A stretch of 64,000 nt of DNA from Bacillus sp. FSL K6-3431 (lineage in GTDB: Bacteria > Bacillota > Bacilli > Bacillales > Bacillaceae_C): assembly GCF_038002605.1 (NCBI RefSeq), contig NZ_JBBOCT010000001.1:2542001-2606000 (forward strand), written 5' to 3'. Of this stretch, positions 20,468 to 49,997 are shown piece after piece. The notes below the pieces were generated by a model. That model did no database searches. It was given only the letters and a program-made list of their open reading frames with translations, and was not told where the DNA came from. Position 1 is the first letter of the stretch. Each line of letters opens with the position of its first letter. Both the position numbers and the translations under genes were made by a program.

Positions 20468-20777
20468 AGACACTTTCCTTCCGTATATGATGATTGCGCT
20501 TTCGCAAACAACAAGATTTTTATTATGTAATATTAGCTATCTTCCTATCGATGATAAGCTTCAACACCACCCTTCTACCTAAGTATTCGATAGATTACTC
20601 GACATTTCCTCCCACAATCCAATCTTGTACACCATGTTGAGTAGGAATAATAAAGAAACGCGAGCAGGGAACAAACAAGTGAAGGTGGCGTACAGAAAAA
20701 TTCATTAAATCGCATTCCCGTTTTTGATAGACGATCGAGGTTTGGTGTCCTATTTCTTTATTTCCATAGCGGCATAA
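20468..20777. other. Non-coding stretch before sulfatase 3
   Basis: 310 bp without a convincing gene. It must contain the sulfatase operon promoter. A 67-codon frame on the minus strand at 20595-20798 runs into the repeat element, has no RBS and matches nothing recognised. Confidence 0.5.
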
Positions 20778-21532
20778 AGTGGGTGTCCAAAAAGTCATAT
20801 AATTGGATTTTTAGGAGCCCCTCTCCATTTTATCCTCATCGCGAAAAAGACACGTCTTGGTCATTGGACGCACTTCGATATCCCCTCCCTACGAAAAAAG
20901 CAGGACTAAGGTAAATCGAACGTTTACCGATTACCCCTCACTGCGAGAAAAGCAGGACTATGGTAAATCGAACGTCTACCGATTGCCCCTCCCTGCGAAA
21001 AAAGCAGGACTATGGTAAATCGAACGTCTACCGATTGCCCCTCCCTGCGAAAAAATCAGGACTAAGGTAAATCGAACGCCTACCGATATCCCCTCACTGC
21101 GAAAAGAGCAGGACTATGGTAAATCGAACGCCTACCGATTGCCCCTTCCTGCGAAAAAAGCAGGACTATGGTAAATCGAACGCCTACCGATATCCCCTCA
21201 CTGCGAAAAGAGCAGGACTATGGTAAATCGAACGCCTACCGATTGCCCCTCACTGCGAAAAAAGCAGGACTATGGTAAATCGAACGCCTACCGATTGCCC
21301 CCTCACTGCGAAAAAAGCAGGACTATGGTAAATCGAACGCCTACCGATTGCCCCTCACTGCGAAAAAATCAGGACTAAGGTAAATCGAACGCCTACAGAT
21401 ATCCCCTCACTGCGAAAAGAGCAGGACTATGGTCAATTGAATGCCCCCACTCCAATCAACAATCAACTTACATATTAAAAAATCAGCAAAAAACCGTTTT
21501 AACGATTTTCCTACTTATCGGACAGCTCCATC
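20778..21532. repeat. 52-bp tandem-repeat element A (about 11 units) with terminal inverted repeats
   Basis: Units with the core GGTAAATCGAACG..TACCGAT, then CCCCTCACTGCGAAAA and GCAGGACTA, recur head to tail. GGTAAATCGAAC begins at 20910, 20962, 21014, 21066, 21118, 21170, 21222, 21274, 21327 and 21379, with a degenerate last copy at 21431: period 52 with one step of 53. A leader (TTAGGAGCCCCTC at about 20811) and a trailer ending TATCGGACAGCTCCATC (21516-21532) are shared with element B at 33920-35040. The left edge GTGGGTGTCC resembles the inverse of the right edge. The period is not a multiple of three, so the units are not coding. Confidence 0.85.
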
Positions 21533-21602
21533 AGATATTTGTTTGCTTTTGATGTGATTTCTATGAGTATGCTCTCCTATCTCTTAAAAATCACAGTGTT
21601 AC

Positions 21603-21642
21603 AATAGAAACAGAGTGCGGATAACCGTACCCTGTTTCTATT
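21603..21642. terminator. Hairpin downstream of binding protein 2
   Basis: AATAGAAACAG (21603-21613) pairs with CTGTTTCTATT (21632-21642). It lies about 115 nt after the stop codon at 21758. The T-rich tail is better on the plus strand, so it may be bidirectional. Confidence 0.6.
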
Positions 21643-21757
21643 TTCATTTAAATATGAGACTTTAATAATCATTTCAGCCTTTGGCATTGTATGTTTAGTT
21701 TCACCATACCAAGTTACCAAAACTACAGGATGCTACGCATTTGTGATTCCATTTTTC

Positions 21758-23305
21758 TTATTTGAATTCATCATAGTACTTCTGATAGATTTCCAATAAT
21801 TCAGCTAAACCCATTTTTTCCAATTGCTTGACGTACCCATCCCATTGCGCATCTATATCCCCATTAATTATAAACTTAGGAATTGTTTCATTCATATAAT
21901 TGTTGATATCTGTTGACAGGATTGACAAACGATCCCCGTCTTCCACACTGTATAATACATTTGGATAGATTTCCTCCGGTTGGAAAGGAGCATACATTTC
22001 AGCATATTCTTCTTTCTCAATTTGGCCGGGGCTTTTATTCACTTTATCATTCGTTTCCTCTAGATTAGCATACACACCATATGAACCAGGAGTTGTTTTA
22101 TGTCTAAATTCTTCATAACTCATGCCTTCAGGTGCTTCAAGAATAGTGATTGTTCCATCGTCTTCCTTTTTAATATTTTCGCCAAGTGGTCCTAATGATA
22201 CTTGTATACCTATTTCTTCATCAAACATTTGGTCGACCCATTGAATGGAACGGACTGGATTTTTATTAGCTGAAGTTATCGAAAAGCCTGACATACTTAA
22301 CCCTCCAGCGTTAGCATTCCACATTTGATCCCCTTCTGGTCCTTTTAGCGGAGGAATCGCCACATAATCTGTCTCTACCTTCCCAAAAGATGAAAAGTTG
22401 GACCAACTAAAAAGCGCACCTAAGATTGGTGTACTGCTTTTAATCTTAGAATCATACACTTGAACATCATGTGTAAAAGACTCTGGATCAATTAAGCCAT
22501 CTTTATACAATTCATTCATATACTTCACATATTCACGATATTCTGGTTGCGTTGGCGCATAATAAACCTTACTATCTTTTACGCCTATATGACGACCAAC
22601 CACGCCAAATGCACCACTCATAGAGTGTGGCCCTCGTATTTGATTTTCAAATGTAAAGCTAAATGGAATTTCATCTTTTTTACCGTTTTCATTCAAATCA
22701 TTTTCCTTAAAAGCTTTTAGTGTTTCATGAAATTCTTCTGTCGTTGTTGGTATTGGTAGATCTAATTGGTCCAACCACTTTTTATTTATAAAGAAAGCAT
22801 CGTTGGACTTACTGGCTTTCGATTCATCATACTGAGGTAAAGCATAGATATGTCCATCAGGCGCAGTGATCATTTTTTTCAGTTCAGGTCGCTTTTCAAA
22901 TAATTTTTTTATATTAGGAGCATGTTCTTCAATCAAATCATCGAGTGCAACTAATTGACCTGTTGATCCGTATTTAACAATATCACTACCTCCTAAGGAC
23001 CATGCCGAATAGAAGACATCCGGTAAATCATCACTGGCGAACATTAAATTGATTTGTTCCGTAGACGTTTGCGTTGTAGCTGTAGTCCACTTTATATCGG
23101 CATTGACATTATCGGCCAATTCCTTTAAAAAAGGCATATCATCGTAATCAGTCGTCGCGGCTGGCGCTTTTATCCCGAATGCATTGATTGTTACTTTCTC
23201 ATCTGAATTTACATCCTCTTTTGCCCCTGCCTCCTCCTTTTTAGAGCTACAAGCGCCAAGCACAAGTAATAAAACAGCAAATAAAGCAATAATTCTTTTT
23301 TTCAT
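21758..23305 (-). CDS. Carbohydrate ABC transporter substrate-binding lipoprotein (cassette 2)
   Basis: 515 residues. Signal MKKRIIALFAVLLLVLGAC gives lipid-attachment Cys19. The mature part is the same large LplA/YtcQ-type solute-binding fold as the protein at 9333-10925. The two share NKKWLDQLDLPIPTTTEEF-like and NGKKDEIPFSF segments, and a C-terminal INGDIDAQWDGYVKQL block that matches INGNIDAEWDEYLKKL in cassette 1. The ligand is presumably an N-glycan-derived or sulfated oligosaccharide, since the secreted GH85 at 28106-30964 and the sulfatases flank it. It is the last gene of a three-gene operon, 43 nt after the permease. GGGGGAAG precedes the ATG. Confidence 0.92.
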   Translation of the reverse strand: MKKRIIALFAVLLLVLGACSSKKEEAGAKEDVNSDEKVTINAFGIKAPAATTDYDDMPFLKELADNVNADIKWTTATTQTSTEQINLMFASDDLPDVFYSAWSLGGSDIVKYGSTGQLVALDDLIEEHAPNIKKLFEKRPELKKMITAPDGHIYALPQYDESKASKSNDAFFINKKWLDQLDLPIPTTTEEFHETLKAFKENDLNENGKKDEIPFSFTFENQIRGPHSMSGAFGVVGRHIGVKDSKVYYAPTQPEYREYVKYMNELYKDGLIDPESFTHDVQVYDSKIKSSTPILGALFSWSNFSSFGKVETDYVAIPPLKGPEGDQMWNANAGGLSMSGFSITSANKNPVRSIQWVDQMFDEEIGIQVSLGPLGENIKKEDDGTITILEAPEGMSYEEFRHKTTPGSYGVYANLEETNDKVNKSPGQIEKEEYAEMYAPFQPEEIYPNVLYSVEDGDRLSILSTDINNYMNETIPKFIINGDIDAQWDGYVKQLEKMGLAELLEIYQKYYDEFK

Positions 23306-23348
23306 TTTCTCTTCCCCCTTCTAATGCTTTTTATAATAAACAGATCGA

Positions 23349-24245
23349 TCAACCTTTAATCGATCCGATCATCACACCTTTTACAAAATGCCTTTGTACA
23401 AATGGATAAAGAATCAGCACCGGCAGGCTTGCAATAATGACAACGCCGTACTTAATCAATTCCGAAATATTTTGTAATTCGGCATTACTATCCATCAAAG
23501 CTCCTGAGTCCACGACTTCCTGTGCTTGAGTTAGTATCAAAACCTCTCTAAGCACCAGTTGGAGCGGAAATAAATCAGCATCCCGTAAATAAATCAACGC
23601 TGAAAAATAAGTATTCCAATGTCCGACGGCACTGAAAAGCACCATAACGGCAATAATTGGTGTGGAGATTGGAAGAACAATTTTTAAAAAGAACTTCCAA
23701 TCACTACATCCATCAACCTTTGCGGCCTCTAACAATTCATCAGGAATCGTACTTTGGAAAAACGTGCGGACGATGATTAAATTAAATACAGAAATAGCAT
23801 TAGGAATAACCATTGCCCATAGCGTATTAACCATTCCTAAGTCTTTTACGAGTAAATAGTTGGGAATCATCCCACCGCTGAAAAACATCGTAAATACGAT
23901 AAAAAACATAAACACATTCCGTCCAATTAAATCTTTTCGCGATAAAGCGTAACCACCTGTAATCGTTAAAACAACATTTACTAACGTACCAATAATCGTA
24001 TAAATTATTGAATTTTTATACCCTGTCCAGATTTTCTCATGTTCAAATATCATCTTGTATCCTTCAAACGTAATTTCTTTCGGCCAAAACCAAATCTCTC
24101 CATTATTCACACTTTCAGGACTGCTGAATGAAGCAATAAACATGAAGTAAAGTGGATATATCGTTACAAACAGAATAACGAGAAAAAACATTACATTCGC
24201 ATAGTCAAAAATTTTATCTCCTCTAGTGCGACTTCCAATATTCAA
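23349..24245 (-). CDS. Sugar ABC permease, LplC/YtcP type (cassette 2)
   Basis: 298 residues from TTG 24245. This start is preferred over longer frames because AGGAGGG lies nine nt upstream, the product then aligns end to end with the cassette 1 permease (which also uses TTG), and overlap with the preceding gene becomes a 16-nt gap. Six membrane helices are predicted; the EAA loop is LLEAAKVDGCSDWKFFLKIV and the C-terminus is ILYPFVQRHFVKGVMIGSIKG. It forms the membrane channel together with the permease at 24262-25227. Energy must come from an ATPase encoded outside the window. Confidence 0.9.
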   Translation of the reverse strand: MNIGSRTRGDKIFDYANVMFFLVILFVTIYPLYFMFIASFSSPESVNNGEIWFWPKEITFEGYKMIFEHEKIWTGYKNSIIYTIIGTLVNVVLTITGGYALSRKDLIGRNVFMFFIVFTMFFSGGMIPNYLLVKDLGMVNTLWAMVIPNAISVFNLIIVRTFFQSTIPDELLEAAKVDGCSDWKFFLKIVLPISTPIIAVMVLFSAVGHWNTYFSALIYLRDADLFPLQLVLREVLILTQAQEVVDSGALMDSNAELQNISELIKYGVVIIASLPVLILYPFVQRHFVKGVMIGSIKG

Positions 24246-24261
24246 TAGACTTCTCCCTCCT

Positions 24262-25227
24262 TTACCATAGACTCGACTGACCAGCTTTTTTAGCTGTCTG
24301 ATTGATGACAATTAGCAAAATAAAGTTAATAACTGAATTGAATAACCCCACAGCGGAAGCGTAGCTATATTGCGCTCCTAGCAACCCCGTTTTGTACACA
24401 TGAGTTTGAATGACTTCTGATGAGGACATATTCAGTGAATTTTGCATCAAATAAACTTTTTCAAAGCCAATACTTAGCAGACTTCCTACATTTAGAATGA
24501 GCAATATAATTACAGTTGGCATAATACCAGGAACATCAATATGCCAAATTCTGCGTAATTTACTTGCTCCATCCATCACAGCTGCTTCGTGTAAATCAGG
24601 ACTAATAGCAGTTAAAGCCGCTAAGTAAATAATCATTCCCCAGCCAAGATTTTGCCAGACGCCAGAAAAGACAAATAGTGGCTTAAACCATTCAGCAATC
24701 CCAAAAAAGAAGATAGGATCACCACCAACCAACACAATTAGTTGGTTAATAATTCCGCTTCGTGGAGATAAGAATAAATACAACATTCCAACCAAAACTA
24801 CTACTGAAATAAAATGCGGTGCGTAGGTAACCGTTTGGACAACTCGCTTAAAACGTGAGCTTACCAATTGGTTTAATAAAAGTGCCATAATAATGGGTAT
24901 TGGAAACATTGCTAATTCAAATACCGCTAAGCCCATCGTATTTTTTAAGACAGTCCAAAACTGATAAGAATTAAAAAAGCGTTCGAAATGTTCTAAACCA
25001 ATCCATGGGCTACCATTGATCCCGAGGACTGGGTTGAAGTTCTTAAAAGCAATTTGTACCCCATACATAGGAAAATAGTGAAATACTAAAAAATAAATCA
25101 ATGTTGGTAGAAGTAAAAGATATAATTGGTAACTTCTCACTATTTTTTTCATTGTACTTGAACGTTTCTTCTGCCTAAGGATCACAGCTTGTTCTTTTTG
25201 AAGTGCCATACTTCCTTGTTCATCCAT
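24262..25227 (-). CDS. Sugar ABC permease, LplB/YteP type (cassette 2)
   Basis: 321 residues from ATG 25227 (MDEQGSMALQ), chosen because GGGGGAG precedes it at 5-nt spacing; an ATG 21 nt upstream lacks an RBS. Six membrane helices are predicted, with the EAA loop DLHEAAVMDGASKLRRIWHI. First gene of the cassette 2 transporter operon. It is strongly similar to the gene at 11843-12817, including YLLLLPTLIYFLVFHYFPMY against YIFLLPTLLYFILFHYVPMY. Its promoter should lie in the gap 25228-25511, where no other gene is convincing. Confidence 0.92.
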   Translation of the reverse strand: MDEQGSMALQKEQAVILRQKKRSSTMKKIVRSYQLYLLLLPTLIYFLVFHYFPMYGVQIAFKNFNPVLGINGSPWIGLEHFERFFNSYQFWTVLKNTMGLAVFELAMFPIPIIMALLLNQLVSSRFKRVVQTVTYAPHFISVVVLVGMLYLFLSPRSGIINQLIVLVGGDPIFFFGIAEWFKPLFVFSGVWQNLGWGMIIYLAALTAISPDLHEAAVMDGASKLRRIWHIDVPGIMPTVIILLILNVGSLLSIGFEKVYLMQNSLNMSSSEVIQTHVYKTGLLGAQYSYASAVGLFNSVINFILLIVINQTAKKAGQSSLW

Positions 25228-25511
25228 ATCGTCTCCCCCATTCCTCATCTGAAAACGGATACATTATATCCATGTAGCTAACGCCGCCCTCTCATTGCTA
25301 GTATCATAAAGGAGTTTTTTGAGGCAACGCAACCGGTAAATTCCACATACATATGCGAGAACAAACTTTATTTGAAAAACGCTTCGTTTCACACAATCGG
25401 CTAAAAGCAAACCAATATGCCAAATACGCACACATACTAAATCATTGATATACTGCATTCTTTCGAGATATTTCAATATTATCCATGAAATGTCACTGCT
25501 GCTAGACAATG

Positions 25512-25538
25512 AAAAAAAAGCCTAGCTAAGCTAAGCTT
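25512..25538 (-). terminator. Terminator of AraC-type regulator 2
   Basis: On the minus strand an AAGCTTAGCT/AGCTAGGCTT hairpin is followed by eight T (complement of the A run 25512-25519). It lies 5 nt after the stop codon at 25543. Confidence 0.8.
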
Positions 25539-25542
25539 CCCA

Positions 25543-27780
25543 TTACTTGTTATTTGCATATTTTTTTCTGTATTCGCCTGGTGTTAGTTGTGTCGATTGC
25601 TTAAACCTTCTAATAAAACTAGAAACATCACTATAACCTACCTGCGTAACAATTTCTTTTATTGGGATATCCGTTGTTTCTAGCAGATGTTTCGTCTGAT
25701 CCATCCGTAAACGATTCAAATGTTGCAAAATAGTATCCCCTGTTTGCTTTTTAAAATAACGCATAATATATGTTTCAGATAAGGAAAAGTGGCTCGCAAG
25801 CGATTGGATAGAAAATGTATAATCTCGATAGTTCTCTTTCATATATACCAAAATGTCATCCAACAATTTTTGATTGGAGGTAGTCCTGTCATCATGTCGA
25901 AAGGCAGCCTGGATCATCTTTGTTACTGTATCTTCTATTTCTTCCACAGAATGAAAATCATTAATAAGAAAAACATCTGGCAAAGTACCACCGACCTCTT
26001 TTTGAAAACGTCGCATATCATGAACTATTCTCATGATAGTGCTCGATACATCGAAACTGAGGCATTTCGCCATAAATAAATTCGTATCTTCTGCCTTAAT
26101 AATACGCACAATCTGATCAATGATCTTATCTACCTGTTCCTTATCTTTTTGCCTTAAAAACAATTCCAACTGTTCTACAATTCGCTTATCATACCATTGA
26201 ACGCTTGGATTTTGCGCAGAAGTTTCTGTAAAAAAAATGATTTGATCCACACCTTTAATTAATTTATAATGAAGCGCTGTAGATGCCTCTAAATGGGACT
26301 TTCCTATTTGCGTGATATCATGATAACTCTGTCCAACACCAATCGTTATCGTAGAAGATTGACTCCTGATATAGTCCTGATACCAGCTCATCAATAAGGA
26401 TACATCCACCTCACCAGACAAAATAATTGCTATTTTAGATGTTTCGAATAAATCAATTTGATACTTTTCTTTATTCGGTAAGTGGGATAACGACTCTTCA
26501 ACTATATTATTTTTCATTTTAAATGGAGGGAAATCTTGTTTATGGAAGTCTACTAACATGACGAAGTATGACGAGTCTTTTAAAATCAAATCAACTTCCT
26601 TCCCCAATGCATTAAAGTCTGTATAATCGGTCATTTCTCCTCTTAATAAACGAGTCAACAGATGCTGTTGGAGAACAGGACGACTGCTCTCCACACGCTT
26701 ACTTAACATTTGATTCACCGAATCCGTATAATCTATTGCTCCCCATACTTTATCTAGCTCGTGACGATGATCCCCAGCAAGTGCCCACTTTTCGTCCGCA
26801 CGCCGGATTAACCTGCGCAATGGTCTATAGTTCATGTACATACCTAAATAAATGAGCAATCCCCCCGTACCGAATATGACGATATAAGAGAATAATACCT
26901 TATTTCTAACACTATGGATTTCCTTCATCAGTTCTTTTTCTGGCGTTATCGTAATGTATGTCCAATCAAGAAATTCAGAATTCACGTAGGAAATAAAATA
27001 TGTTTGATCCCCTAATGTCAGATTTCGAACCCCTTGAACTCCCTCTTTTTTTATCTCTTTGTTAATAAGGGATAAATCGGTATCCTTATGATAAAGACTT
27101 GCCACTATCTGCTCATTTTCATCTAATATAAAAGCATTTCCTTCCTCCGTATGGACAACATTTTTCAACATATCCTTCATCACTTTTTCCTTAATTAAAA
27201 AAAGTAGTGTCCCATAGGGCTTGTTATTATTTAAAGGTATAGGCACCCCATAAGTAATCATCCGGGATTGAACCCCATTGAATAACTTAATATCTTCAGC
27301 GTTCCGCAAAAACTGGTCTTCACTTTCATTGATATCTTGATAGAACTCATCATATGGCCAATGCATGTACTGATAGTGCGACTGGAGGAAAAGTGGAACA
27401 GAATAACTAGAATCTCCAGAATATATATAATCTCCATCTCTAATATAATAAAAAAGATCATAAATAAAATCATTTCCCACTTTATAGTTTAATAACTTCT
27501 TTGCCTTAAACACATCATAGAAGTTATTAATACTATATGGCGTTAACTCAGGTTGAGTCGAGATCTGCATAGAAATATTATGCAATTCAAGTAACTTCGT
27601 ATCCATAATATCTTTCATCTGTGTCAACTTTTGCTTATTTGATGCAGTTACCTGTTCTTTTAAACTCGTCATTAACTGGAAATGAATAATATACCCCATG
27701 ATAAAGATAGGGATAATGAGTAGAATAATATAAAATAATAAATGCTGATAAATGAGTGGAATTCTTAAGTTCTTCACCAA
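25543..27780 (-). CDS. Membrane-anchored AraC-family regulator with extracytoplasmic sensor (cassette 2)
   Basis: 745 residues, the same length and architecture as the regulator at 13090-15327. Membrane helix 1 is near 12-32 (LLFYIILLIIPIFIMGYIIH), an extracellular sensor region follows, helix 2 is near 290-310 (FSYIVIFGTGGLLIYLGMYM), and the AraC-type HTH pair is near 645-740 (FSIQSLASHFSLSETYIMRY, then IVTQVGYSDVSSFIRRFKQ). It should respond to an external glycan signal and activate cassette 2 and perhaps the secreted GH85 next to it. TTG 27780 follows GAGGGGGCCA; a GTG one codon later is an alternative start. Confidence 0.9.
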   Translation of the reverse strand: MVKNLRIPLIYQHLLFYIILLIIPIFIMGYIIHFQLMTSLKEQVTASNKQKLTQMKDIMDTKLLELHNISMQISTQPELTPYSINNFYDVFKAKKLLNYKVGNDFIYDLFYYIRDGDYIYSGDSSYSVPLFLQSHYQYMHWPYDEFYQDINESEDQFLRNAEDIKLFNGVQSRMITYGVPIPLNNNKPYGTLLFLIKEKVMKDMLKNVVHTEEGNAFILDENEQIVASLYHKDTDLSLINKEIKKEGVQGVRNLTLGDQTYFISYVNSEFLDWTYITITPEKELMKEIHSVRNKVLFSYIVIFGTGGLLIYLGMYMNYRPLRRLIRRADEKWALAGDHRHELDKVWGAIDYTDSVNQMLSKRVESSRPVLQQHLLTRLLRGEMTDYTDFNALGKEVDLILKDSSYFVMLVDFHKQDFPPFKMKNNIVEESLSHLPNKEKYQIDLFETSKIAIILSGEVDVSLLMSWYQDYIRSQSSTITIGVGQSYHDITQIGKSHLEASTALHYKLIKGVDQIIFFTETSAQNPSVQWYDKRIVEQLELFLRQKDKEQVDKIIDQIVRIIKAEDTNLFMAKCLSFDVSSTIMRIVHDMRRFQKEVGGTLPDVFLINDFHSVEEIEDTVTKMIQAAFRHDDRTTSNQKLLDDILVYMKENYRDYTFSIQSLASHFSLSETYIMRYFKKQTGDTILQHLNRLRMDQTKHLLETTDIPIKEIVTQVGYSDVSSFIRRFKQSTQLTPGEYRKKYANNK

Positions 27781-28003
27781 TGGCCCCCTCGTTTATTTAA
27801 AAACAGCAGATGCATAAAACCATTATTTTCATTGAATTTCCTTATCTAAAAGTAAGCGATACCATATTTATTGTCAATCAGTCTATAGAAATTACGCTAA
27901 AATTCAATAGTTACAAATTGTTAGACATAGATTGTCTAATTAACAATATATCTCAGCTCTTCAGTCAAATGTAGATATTTCTACAAACCAAGTTTTCACC
28001 AAC
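27781..28003. other. Gap upstream of regulator 2
   Basis: AT-rich, without a recognisable gene or clear sigma-A boxes. It contains imperfect inverted bases around TTACAAATTGTTAGACATAGATTGTC (about 27908) but no defined site. Confidence 0.4.
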
Positions 28004-28054
28004 AAAAAAAGCTATCGCCCCCCTCCACATAGAGAGGGATCGATAGCTTTTTTG
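28004..28054 (-). terminator. Strong bidirectional terminator after secreted GH85
   Basis: AAAAAGCTATCG (28006-28017) and CGATAGCTTTTT (28041-28052) form a 12-bp stem, extended inward by CCCTC/GAGGG. It sits about 50 nt after the GH85 stop at 28106. Confidence 0.9.
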
Positions 28055-28105
28055 TTTACTTTAATAATAACTTACTTCTGAAGCGAATTATTATCGACGG
28101 TCATA

Positions 28106-30964
28106 TTAATTTTCTTCATTACCATACGTGTATGTTACGGGCTCTGACATATTACCACTGTAGTCTTCCATAACGATTGTGACTACACCGCTCTCTGACG
28201 GAACTTTAATATTCCTTGAGGCTGTGCTTGAATTTAAATAGCTTTTCCCTCTTGTTCCGTATGGGGTAGAAGTTGTATATTCATTCTGGAAAGTTAATGG
28301 CTTTCCATCCACATAAGCATACATTCTCCACCAATCTTCTTGTCTTGGAGCGTCAAGACTAATGTAGGAAGATGCACCACTCTTAGCAACTTTAATCTCG
28401 CCGCTGTATGGTTCAATGTTTACATCCTTTAGTTTACCTGTATAGAGAATAGGTTCACCTTGTTTGTTATTAGGTCCTACTACGGACAGAGCTAATGAAT
28501 ATTCCGAGCCATCTGCTATAGGGATAGCGATCTGAGTTGAGGTAGTTCGCATATCTACAGTCTTTTTAAAAGTCTCCTTTTTGGTACTGTTAATAAATGA
28601 AACTTCCAGGTTGATGCTAGAATATTTCATTTTTGGTTTTTTCCAACTTATATCTAAAGTTTCTACATTTGCAGATTGCATAAGGTTTCCACTTGGAGTC
28701 AAAGCTTCCTCTACAGTTATATCTCTTACCTTTGTCGAAAAATCATAACTAGTTGTTGCAGGTGTGCTCTCCGTTTTGTCTGCACCAACTGCTCTTAGCT
28801 CTAAGCTTACTATTTTCTTTTCACCATATAACGATTTGATATAGAATGTATCCCCATATGTTCCACCTAAGTATACTCTTTTACCGTTAGACAGGTTTGC
28901 ATATAAGTTATATTGTTTTACTTTGCTATAATCTTCTATATCCCAGGCTACTATCATTTCATTTGTATCGTGAGCTTTTTTCACTGTAAATCCTGTTGGT
29001 GTATCAGGGGTTACATCTGAGCCATTAGTAATTTTGATTTCCCCTATGTTCATTTGGTATTTTTCAATTACAGAACCTTCCTGTAGTCCAAATGATAATC
29101 CTATTGCTGAAATTTCTTTACCTGTAAACTTGCTTAAATCAAGCTCTTTAGTAACCCATTTTTTAGACTTTTTATTAGCCTCAGGAACGTTAATATATTC
29201 AATCTTATTGGGCTCATCTTTGAATATTAAACCGACTTTCATATTAGATTTATCTGTTTTCGATGATTTGTTGTACGCAATTGATAACTTGCTGTTTGCC
29301 TCTACGTCTAAATTAGTTTTATATAGGCGCAAGAAGTTTTCAGCATTAAGCTTACCTGTTACTACAAGTGAACTTCCACCATCATAAGCGCCAATTTTTT
29401 TATAGTCGTATGCTTCTGTATTATATTTTTTACCATAATCAAAGTCTACCGCAAGCTTGTTTTCACTTGTTGTGTCAATCCACCATTGCCATGTTGGAAG
29501 AATATCTTGAAGGTTAATATTTGACCATTGATTATCATTAATAACTTTACCCTTCTGATAATACTCCATACCGTGTCCTGTGTTAAAGTTTGTCGCAAAT
29601 GTTGAGTCGCTAATTACTGAACGCTCGCTTGCAAAATGTGCAACTCCGGCCCATCCACCAGCATTATCCGCGTCAACATCGGGTCTAGAATGCCCTGGTT
29701 TTTTCCCTGTATTAGTCGGATCCATTAAAACGCCTGAATAATACATTCTTTCCCGTTCTGCTACCATCCATTGATTTTCAGCCTCTTCTGCTTTCCGTTC
29801 TAAATTAAGTTGAATAAAATCACTAGGAGTGAACAACGCTACACTACCCATTAGATTACCAGTTTCATCAAGTAAGTTTTCAACATCACTCGCGGAACCA
29901 TGTGAACCGCTTAACTTTCCTTGGGCTGCTTCAACTCCGAAAAAAACTTGTTTAAAAGGGTCTATTCCTCTATCAGCAGCATGCTGTAAAGAAGTCTCAA
30001 TCCTGTTAGATCTAAACCAGTCATAATTTATAAAGAGGGAATCATTTACATTTCCATATTTATCATCTTTAATCCAGTGGCTGTTTTTTTCATTCAGCTG
30101 ATTTTGATATTGTAATCTACCGTCTGGAAGAATTGAGTCGTACGATTGAATATAAAGACCATTTTCCATTAGATATTTTGTAAACTGCTTATAGATAGGA
30201 ACATCAGCAGCAGGGACAGTTTCTTCTAAATTAATGAAAAAACCATCAAAACCATAATAATTTGCAAATTCAATTAGTTTTTTTCCAATTGGAAATTCGC
30301 CATTCTCATCTTGTGCAATCATCTGTTTAGGAGCTTGACCTGCACGTGGTAAAAATATAGCCCCTAGAGATTTAACCCCATTTTTATGTGCTGCATTGGT
30401 ATATGCAGGGTTAGGTACATTTATAATACCAAATTCGAAGAATCTATTTTGCCAAGGGCCTTCTGGTTCATAAAGACTCATGGGTACTCCTTTAGTTACT
30501 ACCCCATGCCATGAAGCATAGTAGTCTGTGTATTGCCAAAAGTTATATTGGTATTGGCTAAAATCATTATTATACGGCAGTCCTTCAAAAAAAGAGTTCC
30601 CGTAGTCACCTCCCATAACTAAAATTTCCGCTTCTGATTTAAGGTTTTGATTTGCCTGTGTTGCTGCTAATGGTTCTATACGCTCCTGAATAGGAACATT
30701 TGCACGCATTAATTCTGCATATGGGTCTGTTTCAGGTGACCACTTTTCGATATCATATATACGATGCCCAACCATACGGGGTTGATTGTCGCCTGTTGCA
30801 GCATCTCCTGTATATGGCCAAGTATCGGCTAACACAGCTCCTACACCTAGAATTCCAGCACTACTTAAAACTTGTACCAACATGAGGACTGCTACAAACA
30901 ATACTGTTATTCTTTTCATCTTGCTATTTTTATATAGTTTGTGACCTTTATACACCTTTTCCAC
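28106..30964 (-). CDS. Secreted GH85 endo-beta-N-acetylglucosaminidase
   Basis: 952 residues starting at GTG 30964 behind GAGGAAGG. The N-terminus carries a signal peptide (hydrophobic 19-44, likely cleavage after VLA at 44-46). The GH85 domain spans about 65-530, with catalytic N245 and E247 in FDGFFINLEE, and landmarks LAATQANQN, NFWQYTDYYASWHG, INVPNPAYTNAAHKNGV and LPTWQWW. A beta-sandwich module (about 540-655) and fibronectin-III-like modules (about 655-850 and beyond) follow. No LPXTG or S-layer anchor is visible, so it should be released. It would cleave the chitobiose core of N-glycans on external glycoproteins. It shares order and motifs with the cytosolic paralogue at 7054-9102. 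The cassette 2 regulator and importer lie downstream. Confidence 0.93.
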   Translation of the reverse strand: MEKVYKGHKLYKNSKMKRITVLFVAVLMLVQVLSSAGILGVGAVLADTWPYTGDAATGDNQPRMVGHRIYDIEKWSPETDPYAELMRANVPIQERIEPLAATQANQNLKSEAEILVMGGDYGNSFFEGLPYNNDFSQYQYNFWQYTDYYASWHGVVTKGVPMSLYEPEGPWQNRFFEFGIINVPNPAYTNAAHKNGVKSLGAIFLPRAGQAPKQMIAQDENGEFPIGKKLIEFANYYGFDGFFINLEETVPAADVPIYKQFTKYLMENGLYIQSYDSILPDGRLQYQNQLNEKNSHWIKDDKYGNVNDSLFINYDWFRSNRIETSLQHAADRGIDPFKQVFFGVEAAQGKLSGSHGSASDVENLLDETGNLMGSVALFTPSDFIQLNLERKAEEAENQWMVAERERMYYSGVLMDPTNTGKKPGHSRPDVDADNAGGWAGVAHFASERSVISDSTFATNFNTGHGMEYYQKGKVINDNQWSNINLQDILPTWQWWIDTTSENKLAVDFDYGKKYNTEAYDYKKIGAYDGGSSLVVTGKLNAENFLRLYKTNLDVEANSKLSIAYNKSSKTDKSNMKVGLIFKDEPNKIEYINVPEANKKSKKWVTKELDLSKFTGKEISAIGLSFGLQEGSVIEKYQMNIGEIKITNGSDVTPDTPTGFTVKKAHDTNEMIVAWDIEDYSKVKQYNLYANLSNGKRVYLGGTYGDTFYIKSLYGEKKIVSLELRAVGADKTESTPATTSYDFSTKVRDITVEEALTPSGNLMQSANVETLDISWKKPKMKYSSINLEVSFINSTKKETFKKTVDMRTTSTQIAIPIADGSEYSLALSVVGPNNKQGEPILYTGKLKDVNIEPYSGEIKVAKSGASSYISLDAPRQEDWWRMYAYVDGKPLTFQNEYTTSTPYGTRGKSYLNSSTASRNIKVPSESGVVTIVMEDYSGNMSEPVTYTYGNEEN

Positions 30965-31302
30965 TTTCCTTCCTCATATATATTTTTAAATGAAGATACA
31001 ATTACAAACGTTAGTATCAAGACATGAGTGAGTCCCTTTAATGGTTTTTCATAAGATACTCCTCCATTTCATAAAAATATACCACCGGTATAAGACACTC
31101 ATTTTGCCAATTTCTCCAAAAAACTTAGCCCTCACCTCCTTTGTTTCATTTCATAAGTCTTTCGAAAATAATCTCCGCTTCACATGTATTAGGTAGTAAT
31201 AGTTTATTGCGAAGGGAAAATATTTAAATATCACCAAACTCCAAACCCGTCATGAAACTCTTCGTTTAAAATCGACACCAAGTTATCTCTTCATTCTAAA
31301 AG
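30965..31302. other. Upstream region of secreted GH85
   Basis: AT-rich DNA with no gene. It should contain the GH85 promoter. A short hairpin ATACCACCGGTAT sits near 31079. Nothing else is recognised. Confidence 0.4.
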
Positions 31303-31318
31303 TTTACAATTTTGTAAA
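31303..31318. promoter_or_regulatory. Palindrome TTTACAA-TT-TTGTAAA
   Basis: Two 7-bp arms separated by two bases, lying between the divergent GH85 and nhaC genes, about 340 nt from the GH85 start. It is loosely similar to the palindrome before the other GH85 gene. Function is only inferred. Confidence 0.3.
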
Positions 31319-31345
31319 TTTATATTTCTTATACTATCAGCTGCA

Positions 31346-31361
31346 TTGTAAGCGCTATACT
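31346..31361. promoter_or_regulatory. Weak cre-like sequence
   Basis: TTGTAAGCGCTATACT has a perfect left half of the CcpA consensus but fails at two constrained right-half positions. It could serve either divergent gene. Confidence 0.25.
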
Positions 31362-31511
31362 TGATAAATCATATTTTAATTGGACTAATCATAGCAAACT
31401 TCCATCTTCTTGCTATACTGCAATATTCATTATCTGTAACTCCCTCTCAAATCCACTTATTATTAACGATAGCCGGGAACACTTCCCCATCGGCATAACT
31501 GTAAAAAAATC

Positions 31512-31633
31512 CATTAGTGCCTAGCACCGCAAAACATGTTATACTATGTTACATGTCCGCGTTGATACATTAAAGTAATATGTTGTTCCCTCTATTCTGA
31601 TGGGAATTTTTATTACAAAGGGAGTTTACATAA
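31512..31633 (+). promoter_or_regulatory. nhaC leader 1: promoter, conserved block and attenuator-like hairpin
   Basis: A -10 box TATACT lies at 31540-31545. A 44-nt block (31532-31575), starting AAACATGTTATACTATG and ending GATACATTAAAG, is identical in leader 2 at 35232-35275. It includes inverted CATGT/ACATG. Then TTCCCTC (31586-31592) pairs with GATGGGAA (31599-31606), leaving one bulged T, and is followed by TTTTTATT: a terminator shape placed before the RBS (AAAGGGAG) of nhaC 1. This suggests control by premature termination; the ligand or factor is unknown. Confidence 0.6.
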
Positions 31634-33037
31634 ATGAAAAAAGAAATGTCAATATGGTTGGCATTAATTCCGATAGTTGGATTAATTGGTTCTGCCACTG
31701 CTTCCATTTTCATATGGAAAGCTGGGATGCACGTCCCTTTATTGATCGGTGTTATCGCCGCGGCAATTGTTGCAGTTGTATGTGGATGGAGTTGGATGGA
31801 TGTTGAAAAAATGATGGTGAACGGTGTTGCTAGAGCATTACCCGCCGTTTTCATCTTACTCATCATTGGTATTATTGTAGGAACTTGGATCGCAAGTGGT
31901 GTCATCCCAACGATGATTTATTATGGGCTTTCCATTATTCACCCTGCATTTTTCGTTCCAATCGTCGCACTTGTGACAGGCATTGTTTCTATTACATTAG
32001 GAAGCTCTTTCACTTCGATTGCCACAATTGGACTTGCCTTTATGGTCATCGGAGAAGGGCTGGGCTTTTCTGCTGGACTCGTTGCAGGTGCAGTAATTTC
32101 TGGTGCTTATTTCGGTGATAAATTATCGCCATTATCCGACACAACTAACATTGCCCCTGTAATGGCCGATACAGACTTATTTAGCCACATAAAACATATG
32201 CTTTGGGACACCATTCCTGCATTTGTAATCGCCATTATCATGTATGGGATTGTTGGTTTTACTGTAGCGTCTAATAATACAGTAAATACAAGTACTATTG
32301 ACATTATTAATGGTGGTTTAAAAGACGTGTTTGTCATTCACCCACTATTATTACTTATGCCATTGCTCACAATCTTTTTAATGATGAAAAGAATTCCAGC
32401 CATTCCCGCTTTGATTGGAGTAGGTTTCCTTGGCGGGGTACTTGCGATCATTATTCAAGGAATACCAATATCAGAAGTAATTCAAATCATGACAAATGGA
32501 TTTTCAGTTACAACTGATGTTGATGCCGTTGACTCCTTATTAAATCGCGGTGGCTTAATGTCCATGTTAGGGACTGTCGCATTATTAACCATTGCGACCG
32601 CTTATGGAGGAATTTTAGAAGAAACCGGAGCTTTTGATGTGTTGACTGGAAAGATAATGGACAAGGTGCACTCCACTGGAATGCTTATTAGCTCAACGAT
32701 TCTGTCCACATTCATTGTTGCCTTCGCTAGCGGCGCTCAATTTCTAGCAATTATTTTACCTGCAAGAACATTTGCGAAAAAGTATAAAGAAATGGGTATC
32801 GATACGAAGAACCTGTCACGCAGTGTAGAAGCTGCAGGCACAGTCGGAATAAACCTCGTTCCCTGGGGTGTCCCTGCCGTATTTGCCATGGGTATCCTCG
32901 GTGCCAGTCCAGGAGAATTCATTCCTTATAGCTTCTTTGTATTCCTTGTACCATTGATCAATATTATTTTCGGCTTCACTGGTTGGACAATTACAAAAAA
33001 GCAATATGCTGAAACGAAAGGAAATACATCACTATGA
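31634..33037 (+). CDS. NhaC-family Na+/H+ antiporter 1
   Basis: 467 residues, almost entirely hydrophobic, with about 11-12 predicted membrane helices. Family landmarks are the ITLGSSFTSIATIG segment, GAYFGDKLSPLSDTTNIAP (the polar, conserved core of NhaC) and a C-terminal SVEAAGTVGINLVPWGVPAV segment. It should exchange sodium for protons, although some NhaC-type proteins move amino or organic acids. The ATG follows AAAGGGAG. Its stop overlaps the ATG of the PqqB-like gene by 4 nt (ATGA), indicating translational coupling. It is regulated through the conserved leader just upstream. A closely similar copy lies at 35351-36751. Confidence 0.88.
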   Translation: MKKEMSIWLALIPIVGLIGSATASIFIWKAGMHVPLLIGVIAAAIVAVVCGWSWMDVEKMMVNGVARALPAVFILLIIGIIVGTWIASGVIPTMIYYGLSIIHPAFFVPIVALVTGIVSITLGSSFTSIATIGLAFMVIGEGLGFSAGLVAGAVISGAYFGDKLSPLSDTTNIAPVMADTDLFSHIKHMLWDTIPAFVIAIIMYGIVGFTVASNNTVNTSTIDIINGGLKDVFVIHPLLLLMPLLTIFLMMKRIPAIPALIGVGFLGGVLAIIIQGIPISEVIQIMTNGFSVTTDVDAVDSLLNRGGLMSMLGTVALLTIATAYGGILEETGAFDVLTGKIMDKVHSTGMLISSTILSTFIVAFASGAQFLAIILPARTFAKKYKEMGIDTKNLSRSVEAAGTVGINLVPWGVPAVFAMGILGASPGEFIPYSFFVFLVPLINIIFGFTGWTITKKQYAETKGNTSL

Positions 33038-33903
33038 GTGAAGTTATTGTAAATGTTTTAGGGACAGCGCAAGATGCTGGCGTACCACATCCAAACTGTT
33101 TTTGTGAAAATTGCAGCCGTGCGCTCGAAGACCCAAGTTTTAAACGATTAGCCGCCTCTTTAGCTATTATTCTACCAGCTGAACGAAAATGGCATTTGCT
33201 AGATGCTACACCTGATTTAAAAGAACAAATGGCTAGATTACAATTAAAATATCAGCTACAAACACAGTTAATGGATAGTATCTTTCTATCCCACGCACAT
33301 ATGGGGCATTATCCAGGATTATTATTTCTAGGTCGTGAAGCAATTGGAGCGAAAGAAGTCCCAGTAATGGCAGGAAAACAGATGAAACGGCTATTAGAAA
33401 GTCACGCACCATGGAGTCAATTAACAAAACTTAGAAATATCGATGTGAATGGAATGGAAAATGGCCAAGTCGTACGGATTGATCCGCAAGTAACTGTCAC
33501 ATTTATAGAGGTTCCACATAGAAACGAATTCTCTGAGACTTTTGCCTTTTTGATCGAAGGACCGAAAAAGAAATTACTCTACGTTCCAGATATTGACCGC
33601 TGGGAACAATGGGATCAAGACCTCGACAAGATTTGCGAAGAGGTGGATATTTGCTTACTTGACGGCACCTTTTACTCCTCTAAAGACCTTGAGAAAATAG
33701 GCCGCGATTATCGAGAGATACCACATCCCGTGATGACAGAAACAATGGACAGACTTCAAGATTTAGCTGAACAAAAGGAAATATATTTTACCCATGTCAA
33801 CCATTCCAATCCAGCTATTCATAGAAATAATGAAGTGAGAAACATAATTGAATCAAGGGGCTTTCACATCGCTGAAGAAGATATGGAGTTCAAGTTGTCT
33901 TAA
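33034..33903 (+). CDS. PqqB-like metallo-beta-lactamase-fold hydrolase
   Basis: 289 residues. It begins with VNVLGTAQDAGVPHPNCFCENC, including Cys22, Cys24 and Cys27, as in PqqB-type proteins. The MBL metal motif appears as LSHAHMGHYPG (H87, H89, H92), with further ligands likely at D197 (VPDIDRW region) and H273 (THVNHSNP). PqqB takes part in pyrroloquinoline quinone formation in Gram-negatives, but no other pqq gene is here, so a hydrolase or oxygenase role on a small molecule is more likely. Translation is coupled to nhaC 1 by a 4-nt overlap. The product may act on a molecule the transporter handles (inference). Cytosolic. Confidence 0.78.
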   Translation: MSEVIVNVLGTAQDAGVPHPNCFCENCSRALEDPSFKRLAASLAIILPAERKWHLLDATPDLKEQMARLQLKYQLQTQLMDSIFLSHAHMGHYPGLLFLGREAIGAKEVPVMAGKQMKRLLESHAPWSQLTKLRNIDVNGMENGQVVRIDPQVTVTFIEVPHRNEFSETFAFLIEGPKKKLLYVPDIDRWEQWDQDLDKICEEVDICLLDGTFYSSKDLEKIGRDYREIPHPVMTETMDRLQDLAEQKEIYFTHVNHSNPAIHRNNEVRNIIESRGFHIAEEDMEFKLS

Positions 33904-33919
33904 TGCATTGGATTCACTA

Positions 33920-35040
33920 GATGGGGGTGTCGGCTTTTTAGGAGCCCCTCCCGATTTTATCATATCATCCTCATCGCGAAAAAGGCACGACCTGGTCATC
34001 GGACGCACTTCGATTTCCCTCCCTGCAAAAAAGCAGGACTATGGTAAATCGAACGTCTATCGATTGCCCCTCCCTGCGAAAAAAGCAGGACTATGGTAAA
34101 TCGAACGTCTACCGATATCCCCTCACTGCAAAAAAGTAGAACTAAGGTAAATCGAACGCCTACCGATATCCCCTCCCTGCGAAAAAAGCAGGAACAAGGT
34201 AAATCGAACGTCTACCGATATCCCCTCACTGCAAAAAAAGTAGAACTAAGGTAAATCGAACGTCTGCCGATATCCCCTCCCTGCGAAAAAAGCAGGAATA
34301 AGGTAAATCGAACGCCTACCGATTGCCCCTCCCTGCGAAAAAGTCAGGAATAAGGTAAATCGAACGCCTACCGATTGCCCCTCCCTCCGAAAAAAACAGG
34401 ACTAAGGTAAATCGAACGTCTACCGATATCCCCTCACTGCAAAAAAGTAGAACTAAGGTAAATCGAACGCCTACCGATATCCCCTCCCTGCGAAAAAAGC
34501 AGGAATAAGGTAAATCGAGCGCCTACCGATTGCCCCTCCCTCCGAAAAAAGCAGGAACAAGGTAAATCGAACGTCTGCCGATATCCCCTCCCTGCGAAAA
34601 AAGCAGGAATAAGGTAAATCGAACGCCTACCGATTGCCCCTCCCTGCGAAAAAAGCAAGAACAAGATAAATCGAACGTCTATCGATTGCCCCTCCCTCCG
34701 AAAAAAGCAGGAATAAGGTAAATCGAACGCCTATCGATTGCCCCTCCCTGCGAAAAAAGCAGGACTATGGTAAATCGAACGTCTATCGATTGCCCCTCCC
34801 TGCGAAAAAAGCAGGACTATGGTAAATCGAACGTCTATTGATTGCCCCTCCCTGCGAAAAAAGCAGGAATAAGGTAAATCGAACGCCTACCGATTGCCCC
34901 TCCCTGCGAAAAAGACACTCCCAAGGTCAATTGAGCGCACCCCACTCCAATCAATTGACATTTTTTTTAAATGAGAGCAAGATGAAAAATCAGCTAAAAG
35001 CCGTTTTACCAATTTTCCCTGCTTATCGGACAGCTCCATC
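33920..35040. repeat. 52-bp tandem-repeat element B (about 17 units) with terminal inverted repeats
   Basis: GGTAAATCGAAC-type cores recur from 34043 to 34873 (34043, 34095, 34146, 34198, 34250, 34302 and so on) with steps of 52 and two of 51. A degenerate final copy is at 34925. Units differ by point changes, for example AGGACTATGG against AGGAATAAGG. The leader at 33936-34010 and trailer at 34920-35040 match element A. The left end GATGGGGGTGTCGG and the inverse of the right end, GATGGAGCTGTCCG, form imperfect terminal inverted repeats. The element fills the gap between the PqqB-like gene and nhaC 2. No spacers, so it is not a CRISPR array. Confidence 0.87.
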
Positions 35041-35214
35041 TTTTTGTGATTCATGAGCATGTACTTGATAAATTAGAATCTTGTTTGAAGCACTTTTTTA
35101 ATAAAAGCGGTACTATTAAAGCACCAAATCATCATTAAATACGAGATAATATGTATAAACATCCCATTAGGTTAATTCCCTTTCTAGTATGAATAGTATG
35201 CAAATTAATCCTAT

Positions 35215-49835: not shown

Positions 49836-49997
49836 TTTTCTGCGAGCAGCTTGCTAACTTACTTGAGTGGACAGTATTTTCTGTGAGCGGCTTGTAAACT
49901 CTCTTGAGTGGACAGTATTTCCGTGAGTGGCTTGCAAACTCACTCGAGTGGACAGTATTTTCTGTGAGTGGCTCGTAAACTTACTTGAGTGGACAGC
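49836..49997. repeat. Four 41-bp tandem repeats
   Basis: GAGTGGACAG starts at 49865, 49906, 49946 and 49987, giving steps of 41, 40 and 41. Each unit reads CTGTGAGYGGCTTGTAAAC then TTACTTGAGTGGACAG with small changes. It lies in the 890-bp gap between GH76 B and the end of the Lsr importer operon. Nothing else is recognised in 49998-50311 or 49422-49668. Confidence 0.8.

What the first reader, a model, noticed from the sequence alone, without database searches (positions are those of the whole stretch)
20778..35040. Two copies of a 52-bp tandem-repeat element with shared ends
Elements at 20778-21532 (about 11 units) and 33920-35040 (about 17 units) are built from contiguous 52-bp units. Both have the same leader, including TTAGGAGCCCCTC and TCATCGCGAAAAA, and the same trailer, including CCACTCCAATCAA and TATCGGACAGCTCCATC. 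Ends of element B form imperfect inverted repeats, GATGGGGGTGTCGG against GATGGAGCTGTCCG. Each unit holds small inverted pairs such as CTGC...GCAG and ATCG...CGAT. No open frame persists (52 is not a multiple of 3). The pattern fits a mobile or amplifying non-coding element, or a protein-binding array, rather than chance satellite growth.
Basis: seen in the sequence. Interest (0 to 1): 0.78.

Follow-up and report, generated by a model that had tools for sequence, protein, structure and literature searches.

The report
Terminator-lodged repeat element, 52-bp units
A Bacillus-type genome carries 18 copies of a non-coding element made of a fixed start, a variable number of 52-base repeats and a fixed end, often lodged inside the hairpins at gene ends; it is a new, somewhat unusual example of a kind of repeat element already known from two other bacteria.

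Summary
Both arrays are real (about 11 and 17 contiguous 52-bp units) and are 2 of 18 dispersed copies in this 5.5-Mb genome. Copies share one leader and one trailer (both ends kept at 15 of 18), with 1 to 17 core units. A diverged family (at least 11 copies) exists in one other genus member, Bacillus sp. FJAT-50079. An exact unit pattern found nothing else in 84,980 species genomes or the other 14 genus genomes held.

I read it as a non-autonomous composite element (MITE-like) with an internal minisatellite, built like BrickBuilt of Porphyromonas gingivalis and pneumococcal BOX. What differs: flanks of one element pair with each other better than with flanks of other elements, as if it sat inside an older hairpin, and no target-site duplication was seen. 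In the sister species, 4 of 5 sites readable on both sides hold a plain hairpin; at the fifth, element A lies in the remnant of a gene that is intact there.

Between arrays of the second species, and between species, a 27-bp dyad of the unit is conserved while the other 25 bp are array-specific. The mobilising enzyme and any host role are unknown. New variant of a known kind.

The parts
20781..21529 (+). Element A, complete: leader, degenerate first unit, about 11 units, trailer
20781..20821 (+). Leader hairpin of A (5' terminal arm GGGTGTCC, hairpin closing at GGAGCCCC)
20835..20881 (+). Degenerate first unit of A (CTCATCGCGAAAAAG...)
20882..21445 (+). 52-bp array of A, 10.8 copies by TRF
21446..21529 (+). 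Trailer of A (CCACTCCAATCAA ... GGACAGCTCC), ends in the 3' terminal arm 21520-21529
33923..35037 (+). Element B, about 17 units; 3' of the MBL-fold gene 33034-33903
33923..33948 (+). Leader of B; the inner left arm (AAAAAGTCATATAATTGG of other copies) is missing
34017..34913 (+). 52-bp array of B, 17.3 copies by TRF
34914..35037 (+). Last specialised unit (GGTCAATTGAGCGCACC) and trailer of B, 3' arm 35028-35037
33906..33922 (+). Left flank of B, complementary in part to the right flank 35038-35054 (outer stem, not part of the element)
   Evidence: -12.5 kcal/mol for 16 nt a side, beyond the clamp

Best explanation
It is a family of non-autonomous composite interspersed elements (MITE-like, with an internal minisatellite). 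A complete copy has a fixed 5' leader that starts with a terminal inverted-repeat arm and forms a hairpin, a degenerate first unit, n tandem 52-bp units, a specialised last unit and a fixed 3' trailer ending in the opposite arm. Shown: dispersal, shared ends, absence from the sister species and plain sites there, no target-site duplication detected, flanks that pair as if the element lay inside an older hairpin, homogenisation within arrays, and bipartite conservation of the unit in G011 and between species. Inferred: copies were spread in trans by an enzyme not found here, which preferred or required hairpins (mostly terminators); insertion was tolerated because the element's own arms and leader hairpin rebuild a hairpin there; afterwards each array gained and lost units by slippage or unequal recombination, which homogenises it. 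The 27-bp dyad is the part kept by selection or by the spreading mechanism.
For: 18 places in the own genome (19 rows; L018 and L019 are one place). Leader hits at 16 of 18 loci plus a 3' part at a 17th, trailer hits at 17 of 18, and no well-supported orphan elsewhere. Sister genome G008 (91% and 90% protein identity in two neighbours) has no detected copy. Of 5 sites where both sides are recognisable it has a plain hairpin at L008, L009, L014 and L018, and an intact sulfatase-family gene at the element A site. At L014 the hairpin GGGGCTGTC...GACAGCCCC of G008, and a like one in G011, occupy the place of the element. Flank pairing: matched mean dG -7.9 against -5.1 mismatched, 3 of 20,000 permutations as low (16 nt; 1 and 6 of 20,000 at 12 and 20 nt); TSD-like matches 0.27 against 0.30; 15 of 18 elements, limits set by hand. 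Nearest unit lies in the same array for 76.5 of 92 units (5.5 expected) in G000 and 119.2 of 123 (13.2) in G011.
Against: No transposase or autonomous copy was found, but only one family (PF05598) was searched; the ends of the copies it found differ from the element's. No recent copies: the closest leader or trailer pair differs by about 5%, so mobility is historical. Ungapped flank pairing is not significant (1390 of 20,000), and only about 6 of 15 copies pair strongly. At L006 and L016 (G008) and L001 (G015) the relative's terminator shares no evident stem with the G000 flanks. The outer stems at L008 and L018 were matched by eye; the alignments are gappy. Absence in the sister but presence in the more distant G011 needs loss or lateral transfer. 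G011 has an element at 2 of 6 examined sites, in opposite orientation both times. Elements are GC-richer (47%) than the window (37%), unlike typical MITEs. The terminator scan does not find clearly more terminators than shuffles do (1 against 1.6, 4 against 2.6).
Confidence: 0.7

Rival explanations
1. Phased protein-binding array kept by the host: each unit carries one dyad (GGTAAATCGA ... YCGAWTGCC), and the 52-bp period (about five helical turns) puts all dyads on one face of the DNA, so the arrays act as binding platforms for a nucleoid or regulatory protein at gene ends.
For: Between array consensuses, positions 1-27 agree at 0.81 against 0.54 for 28-52 in G011 (10 arrays), and 0.80 against 0.48 between species (26 arrays); 3 and 2 of 20,000 position permutations as extreme. 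Period exactly 52 in 192 of 199 steps between well-matched cores (103 of 103 in G011, 89 of 96 in G000), and in 215 of 229 steps with a looser core limited to 47-56 bp (123 of 129 and 92 of 100). TCG/CGA of the dyad is nearly invariant in 26 array consensuses.
Against: Within G000 the two halves do not differ (0.86 against 0.82, 4309 of 20,000). Arrays were found by similarity to one query, which favours arrays with the conserved half. A loose core with a wide step limit (30-75 bp) gives many other steps (207 of 263 are 52), mostly matches inside units. Some copies have shortened units (L003, L004, L017). Unit number runs from 1 to 17 and the sister lacks the family, so a general host role is unlikely. 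No protein identified.
Confidence: 0.15
2. RNA element: transcribed as the 3' end of the upstream gene, the hairpins terminate transcription or stabilise the message; array length tunes this.
For: By a mechanical pick of the longest ORF within 700 bp on each side, 18 of 18 G000 and 10 of 10 G011 elements have at least one gene 3' end facing them; no chance expectation was computed. The leader folds as a hairpin. The one-unit copy L018 with its flanks folds better than shuffles (z -2.5, 4 of 200). Unit alignments fold better than column shuffles in G011 (z -3.5 on the + strand) and, on the reverse strand, for both species together (z -4.5).
Against: No compensatory pair in 10 leaders (0 of 14 pairs). 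Units do not fold better than column shuffles in G000 (z +0.4 and +0.5). The terminator scan calls no terminator inside element A and one weak reverse-strand site in the trailer of B.
Confidence: 0.25
3. Plain minisatellites that arose independently at several places, with no mobile element.
For: Arrays behave as minisatellites: strong within-array homogenisation and visible higher-order repeats. The sister G008 has an unrelated 42-bp array at one of these sites.
Against: The same leader and trailer at 15 of 18 loci, with a degenerate first unit and a specialised last unit in most.
Confidence: 0.03
4. CRISPR, TIGR or another guide array, or a repetitive coding gene.
For: Tandem units with a conserved and a variable half. 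Three of ten G011 arrays have stop-free runs of 186, 225 and 294 codons, reached by fractions 0.01, 0 and 0 of 200 column permutations.
Against: The variable half is alike within an array, so there are no spacers. The window's arrays have no long open frame; 52 is not a multiple of 3.
Confidence: 0.03

Closest known systems
BrickBuilt MITE with minisatellite, Porphyromonas gingivalis (PMC4596501; abstract and 12 passages seen)
   Same: Leader - tandem units without spacers - tail; small inverted-repeat ends; 19 copies in one genome, intergenic, narrow host range.
   Different: 23-nt unit; TIRs most like resident ISs of the IS5 family; putative TSDs at 3 of the 4 copies with both ends. Here 52 bp, no TSD detected, no matching IS found (one family searched), flanks that pair.
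BOX of Streptococcus pneumoniae (boxA-(boxB)n-boxC) (PMC3049150; abstract and sections 3, 5, 6 read)
   Same: Three-module design with variable middle, TIR, over-represented between convergent genes, array length varies.
   Different: BOX makes TSDs; 125 BOX in ATCC 700669, 67-637 bp. Here fewer copies, 243 bp (L018) to 1115 bp (B), no TSD detected.
SPRITE of S. pneumoniae (PMC3049150)
   Same: Terminator-like repeat near gene 3' ends.
   Different: A single hairpin repeat without tandem units.
Group IIC introns and IS200/IS605 elements (recalled, not looked up)
   Same: Insertion at hairpins or terminators, without TSD (recalled).
   Different: No such sequence was looked for by profile; the copies read here hold only leader, units and trailer, with inverted-repeat ends.

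Membership tests
MITE (general) | Terminal inverted repeats | tested here: met
   GGGGGTGTCC / GGACAGCTCC, imperfect
MITE (general) | Target-site duplication | tested here: not met
   15 of 18 elements; matched mean 0.27, mismatched 0.30
MITE (general) | No coding capacity, many dispersed copies | tested here: met
   18 copies; no long ORF in the window's copies
MITE (general) | AT-rich | tested here: not met
   47% GC in A and B against 37% in the window
MITE (general) | Resident IS with matching ends | tested here: inconclusive
   One IS family searched; ends AGAGGCTGGGACAAAAC differ; others not searched
BOX | boxA-(boxB)n-boxC modular order | tested here: met
   Analogous order only: leader, n units, trailer
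BOX | BOX sequence | not tested
   No BOX sequence was aligned
BOX | TSD on insertion | tested here: not met
BrickBuilt | Leader and tail with TIR around a spacerless minisatellite | tested here: met
BrickBuilt | 23-nt unit | tested here: not met
   Period is 52
CRISPR array | Unique spacers between repeats | tested here: not met
   Units contiguous and alike within an array
Known Rfam RNA family | Match above gathering score | tested here: not met
   Only a tRNA in the window

The most novel reading that the evidence does not exclude
A mobile element that homes to DNA hairpins: it enters terminator (and other) stem-loops without duplicating target bases, its ends and leader hairpin rebuild the terminator, and its array is a five-turn-phased row of binding sites for the protein that moves or maintains it.
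Probability: 0.2. Interest if true: 0.7.

Novelty: new variant of a known kind. Interest (0 to 1): 0.45.

Why it matters
If right, it extends composite minisatellite elements (BOX, BrickBuilt) to Bacillaceae. It also gives filled and plain sites suggesting that such elements can live inside terminator hairpins without great cost. That offers a testable model for how repeats at gene ends spread, and a natural series of 1 to 17 units behind different genes for measuring the effect of array length.

Tried and rejected
Coding repeat: rejected for the window's arrays; three G011 arrays are left open. Independent minisatellites: rejected by shared ends. CRISPR/TIGR: no spacers. Carriage by plasmids, phages or viral contigs: no match (near relatives of the window's record may be left out there). 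A resident transposase of family PF05598 (IS1182-type is my recall) as source of the ends: its ends differ. RNA structure: mixed. The 42-bp array of G008: one place in 16 genomes, not a dispersed family. Solo hairpins of the terminal type: a strict pattern gives 7 places in 4 of 16 genus genomes and none in the own genome (the G008 place is the L009 site); in the window, leader-like and end-like motifs are about at chance level apart from the elements themselves. Flanks shared between the two species' elements: of 18 G000 loci against 13 G011 loci only L001 and L025 share a true neighbour. A period count with a loose core and steps of 30-75 bp is unusable because it matches inside units. Papers: searches gave no description of this element in their listings; the strain-name search gave an unrelated paper. 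Seen of papers: PMC3049150 abstract/outline and sections 3, 5, 6; PMC4596501 abstract/outline and 12 passages; the others as search listings only.

Dropped from counts: flank tests used 15 of 18 elements (L010, L012, L015 lack an end), and I set the element limits by hand. The unit identity test used only steps of exactly 52 bp (92 and 123 units). One search used cores with at least 19 of 27 matches; in it the long G011 array L026 gives 9 cores, and the odd steps of L024, L026 and L027 seen fall away. Divergence used 12 of 17 leader hits and 15 of 17 trailer hits. The leader fold used 10 leaders. Open-frame tests covered the 21 arrays of at least 260 bp.

Full report
Observation. The window holds two arrays of contiguous 52-bp units, 20882-21445 (10.8 copies) and 34017-34913 (17.3 copies) by Tandem Repeats Finder. 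With their ends they span 20781-21529 (A) and 33923-35037 (B). Every exact 20-mer of the window that recurs 45-60 bp further on (214 of 214) lies in these two elements. There is no Rfam match other than one tRNA.

Copies in the genome. A search of the window's own genome (5.5 Mb, 2 contigs) with element B gives 18 places (19 rows, two of them one place). Printed side by side they share one anatomy. The leader, as a consensus read by eye, is GGGGGTGTCCAAAAAGTCATATAATTGGCTTTTTAGGAGCCCCTCTCCATTTTATC. Then come a degenerate first unit CTCATCGCGAAAAAGGCACGACCTGGTCATTGGACGCACTTCGATTTCCC, the units, a last unit with GGTCAATTGAACGCAC, and a trailer CCACTCCAATCAACTGACATTTTTTTAAATCAGAGCAAGATGAAAAATCAGCAGAAAGCCGTTTTAACGATTTTCCTACTTATCGGACAGCTCC. 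Leader and trailer were searched alone: both are complete or nearly so at 15 of 18 loci, one end is lost or cut at 3 (L010, L012, L015), and no orphan end stands out elsewhere (the next trailer match is a 28-bp piece, E 0.002). Core units per locus run from 1 to 17. Leaders (12 compared) and trailers (15 compared) differ pairwise by about 5 to 17%, so no copy among them is recent.

Other genomes. Of 41 genomes (own, 15 of the genus, 25 further out) only the own and G011 match element B. An exact unit pattern finds the same two of 16 genus genomes. In 84,980 named species genomes it finds only Bacillus sp. FJAT-50079 (7 stretches), with the caution that near relatives of the window's own record may be left out. 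For 6 of 10 G011 elements a 300-base stretch is identical in a fetched FJAT-50079 locus, so G011 is that strain or one nearly identical. There is no match in 72,556 plasmids or 50,697 phages, nor of the pattern in viral contigs. G011 holds 10 copies with arrays and at least one with a single unit (read).

Place. A mechanical pick of the longest ORF within 700 bp on each side puts at least one gene 3' end facing the element at 18 of 18 G000 and 10 of 10 G011 loci; distances reach 587 bp and no chance expectation was computed. For element A the 3' end is on its right; its left flank is a gene remnant (below).

Inside hairpins. For the 15 copies with both ends, I set the limits by hand and let the left flank pair with the right flank beyond a fixed clamp. 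Flanks of the same copy pair better than flanks of different copies: -7.1, -7.9 and -8.6 kcal/mol against -4.5, -5.1 and -5.8 for 12, 16 and 20 nt, with 1, 3 and 6 of 20,000 permutations as low. A rigid ungapped count does not reach significance (1390 of 20,000). Strong cases are L001, L004, L006, L011, L013 and L018. TSD-like matches are at chance (0.27 against 0.30).

Plain sites. A neighbour gene was looked for in relatives for 17 of 18 elements (L012 was not tried). G008 gave a likely orthologous neighbour for 15 of 17, not for L001 and L007. G008 has no detected copy anywhere. In five cases both sides can be read. L014: G008 has ...AGTAGGGGCTGTCTCACAATAATTGGGACAGCCCC... and G011 a similar hairpin, where G000 has the element, and the arms resemble the element's own. 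L009: G008 has a hairpin GGAGTATCCAAAGTCA...TGACATCTGGACAGCTCC, again like the element's arms. L018: G008 has AAATAAAAGGTGA...TCACCTTTTATTT; G000 has ATATAAAAGG[element]CCTTTTACTTT. L008: G008 has AAATGATGACTTTGGC...GCCAAGGTCATTATTT; G000 has AAATGATG[element]ATTTAG. Element A: in G008 a sulfatase-family gene is intact there (499 codons open to the locus end, PF00884 E 1.5e-50). In G000 the element lies in a remnant of that gene, beside a complete sulfatase gene (18956-20473), and about 35 bp of the G008 gene, with a small hairpin, have no counterpart. So at least element A most likely arrived after the split from G008. Against the hairpin reading: at L006 and L016 (G008) and at L001 (G015) the relative's terminator has no evident stem in common with the G000 flanks, and the L008 and L018 stems were matched by eye in gappy alignments.

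Shared sites. Of 6 G000 sites with a likely orthologous neighbour in G011 (L001, L004, L006, L010, L014, L016), 2 carry an element there too (L001 with L025; L016 with the one-unit copy in L175), both in the opposite orientation. This may be repeated use of the same hairpin or old insertions that flipped; I cannot tell.

The unit. Nearest relatives of a unit are nearly always in the same array (76.5 of 92 and 119.2 of 123), and higher-order repeats are visible by eye (L002, L007, L026), as expected from slippage or unequal recombination. In G011, and between species, the first 27 bp (GGTAAATCGAACNNCNNYCGAWTGCCC) are far better conserved between arrays than the other 25 (0.81 against 0.54; 0.80 against 0.48), but not within G000 (0.86 against 0.82). 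Arrays were found by similarity, which favours the conserved half. The period is exactly 52 in 192 of 199 steps between well-matched cores and in 215 of 229 with a looser core limited to 47-56 bp; the loose core with steps of 30-75 bp gives 207 of 263, mostly because it matches inside units. The dyad TCG...CGA is nearly invariant in 26 array consensuses. Folding of unit alignments is no better than column shuffles in G000 (z +0.4), better in G011 (z -3.5) and, on the reverse strand, for both together (z -4.5). The leader hairpin has no compensatory change in 10 leaders.

Reading. The best account is a MITE-like composite element with a minisatellite, spread in the past by an unknown enzyme into hairpins, mostly terminators, where its own ends keep a hairpin in place. 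Dispersal, absence in the sister, lack of detected TSD and flank pairing are shown. The enzyme, the hairpin preference as a mechanism and any effect on transcription are inferred. Only one transposase family was checked, and its ends differ.

Comparison. BrickBuilt (PMC4596501, abstract and passages) has the same leader-units-tail plan, 19 copies, and putative TSDs at 3 of the 4 copies with both ends. BOX (PMC3049150, sections 3, 5, 6) has A-(B)n-C, TIR and TSD. The present family is built like these but fails the TSD criterion and is not AT-rich, so I do not file it as a member of either; it is a new variant of this kind.

Noticed in passing
window 49836-49996: A 41-bp unit repeated 4 times (TTTTCTGTGAGTGGCTTGCAAACTCACTTGAGTGGACAGTA), intergenic, unrelated to the 52-bp unit; two exact pieces of it are in none of the held loci, and the genome was not searched for it.
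   Followed up: partly
L188 (G008) 1271-1473: At the orthologous place of element L004 the sister species has an unrelated 42-bp array (4.9 copies) before a terminator-like hairpin; a pattern of it is found at this one place only in 16 genomes.
   Followed up: partly
window 20560-20780 and 21530-21600: Remnant of the 5' part of a sulfatase-family gene around element A; the gene is intact in G008, and a complete sulfatase gene stands beside it at 18956-20473.
   Followed up: partly
L027, L030, L026 (G011): Arrays with stop-free runs of 294, 225 and 186 codons, more than nearly all of 200 column permutations; possibly by-products of unit composition, not tested further.
   Followed up: partly
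L003, near 1063-1130, and L182 (G008): A hairpin GGGCTGTTCCAAAAGTCATAAAATGGCTACGGGACAGCC after a gene in both species closely resembles the element's leader hairpin; the leader may descend from such a terminator (by eye).
   Followed up: no
window 31634-33037 and 35351-36751: Two Na+/H+ antiporter-family genes flank the MBL-fold gene and element B.
   Followed up: no
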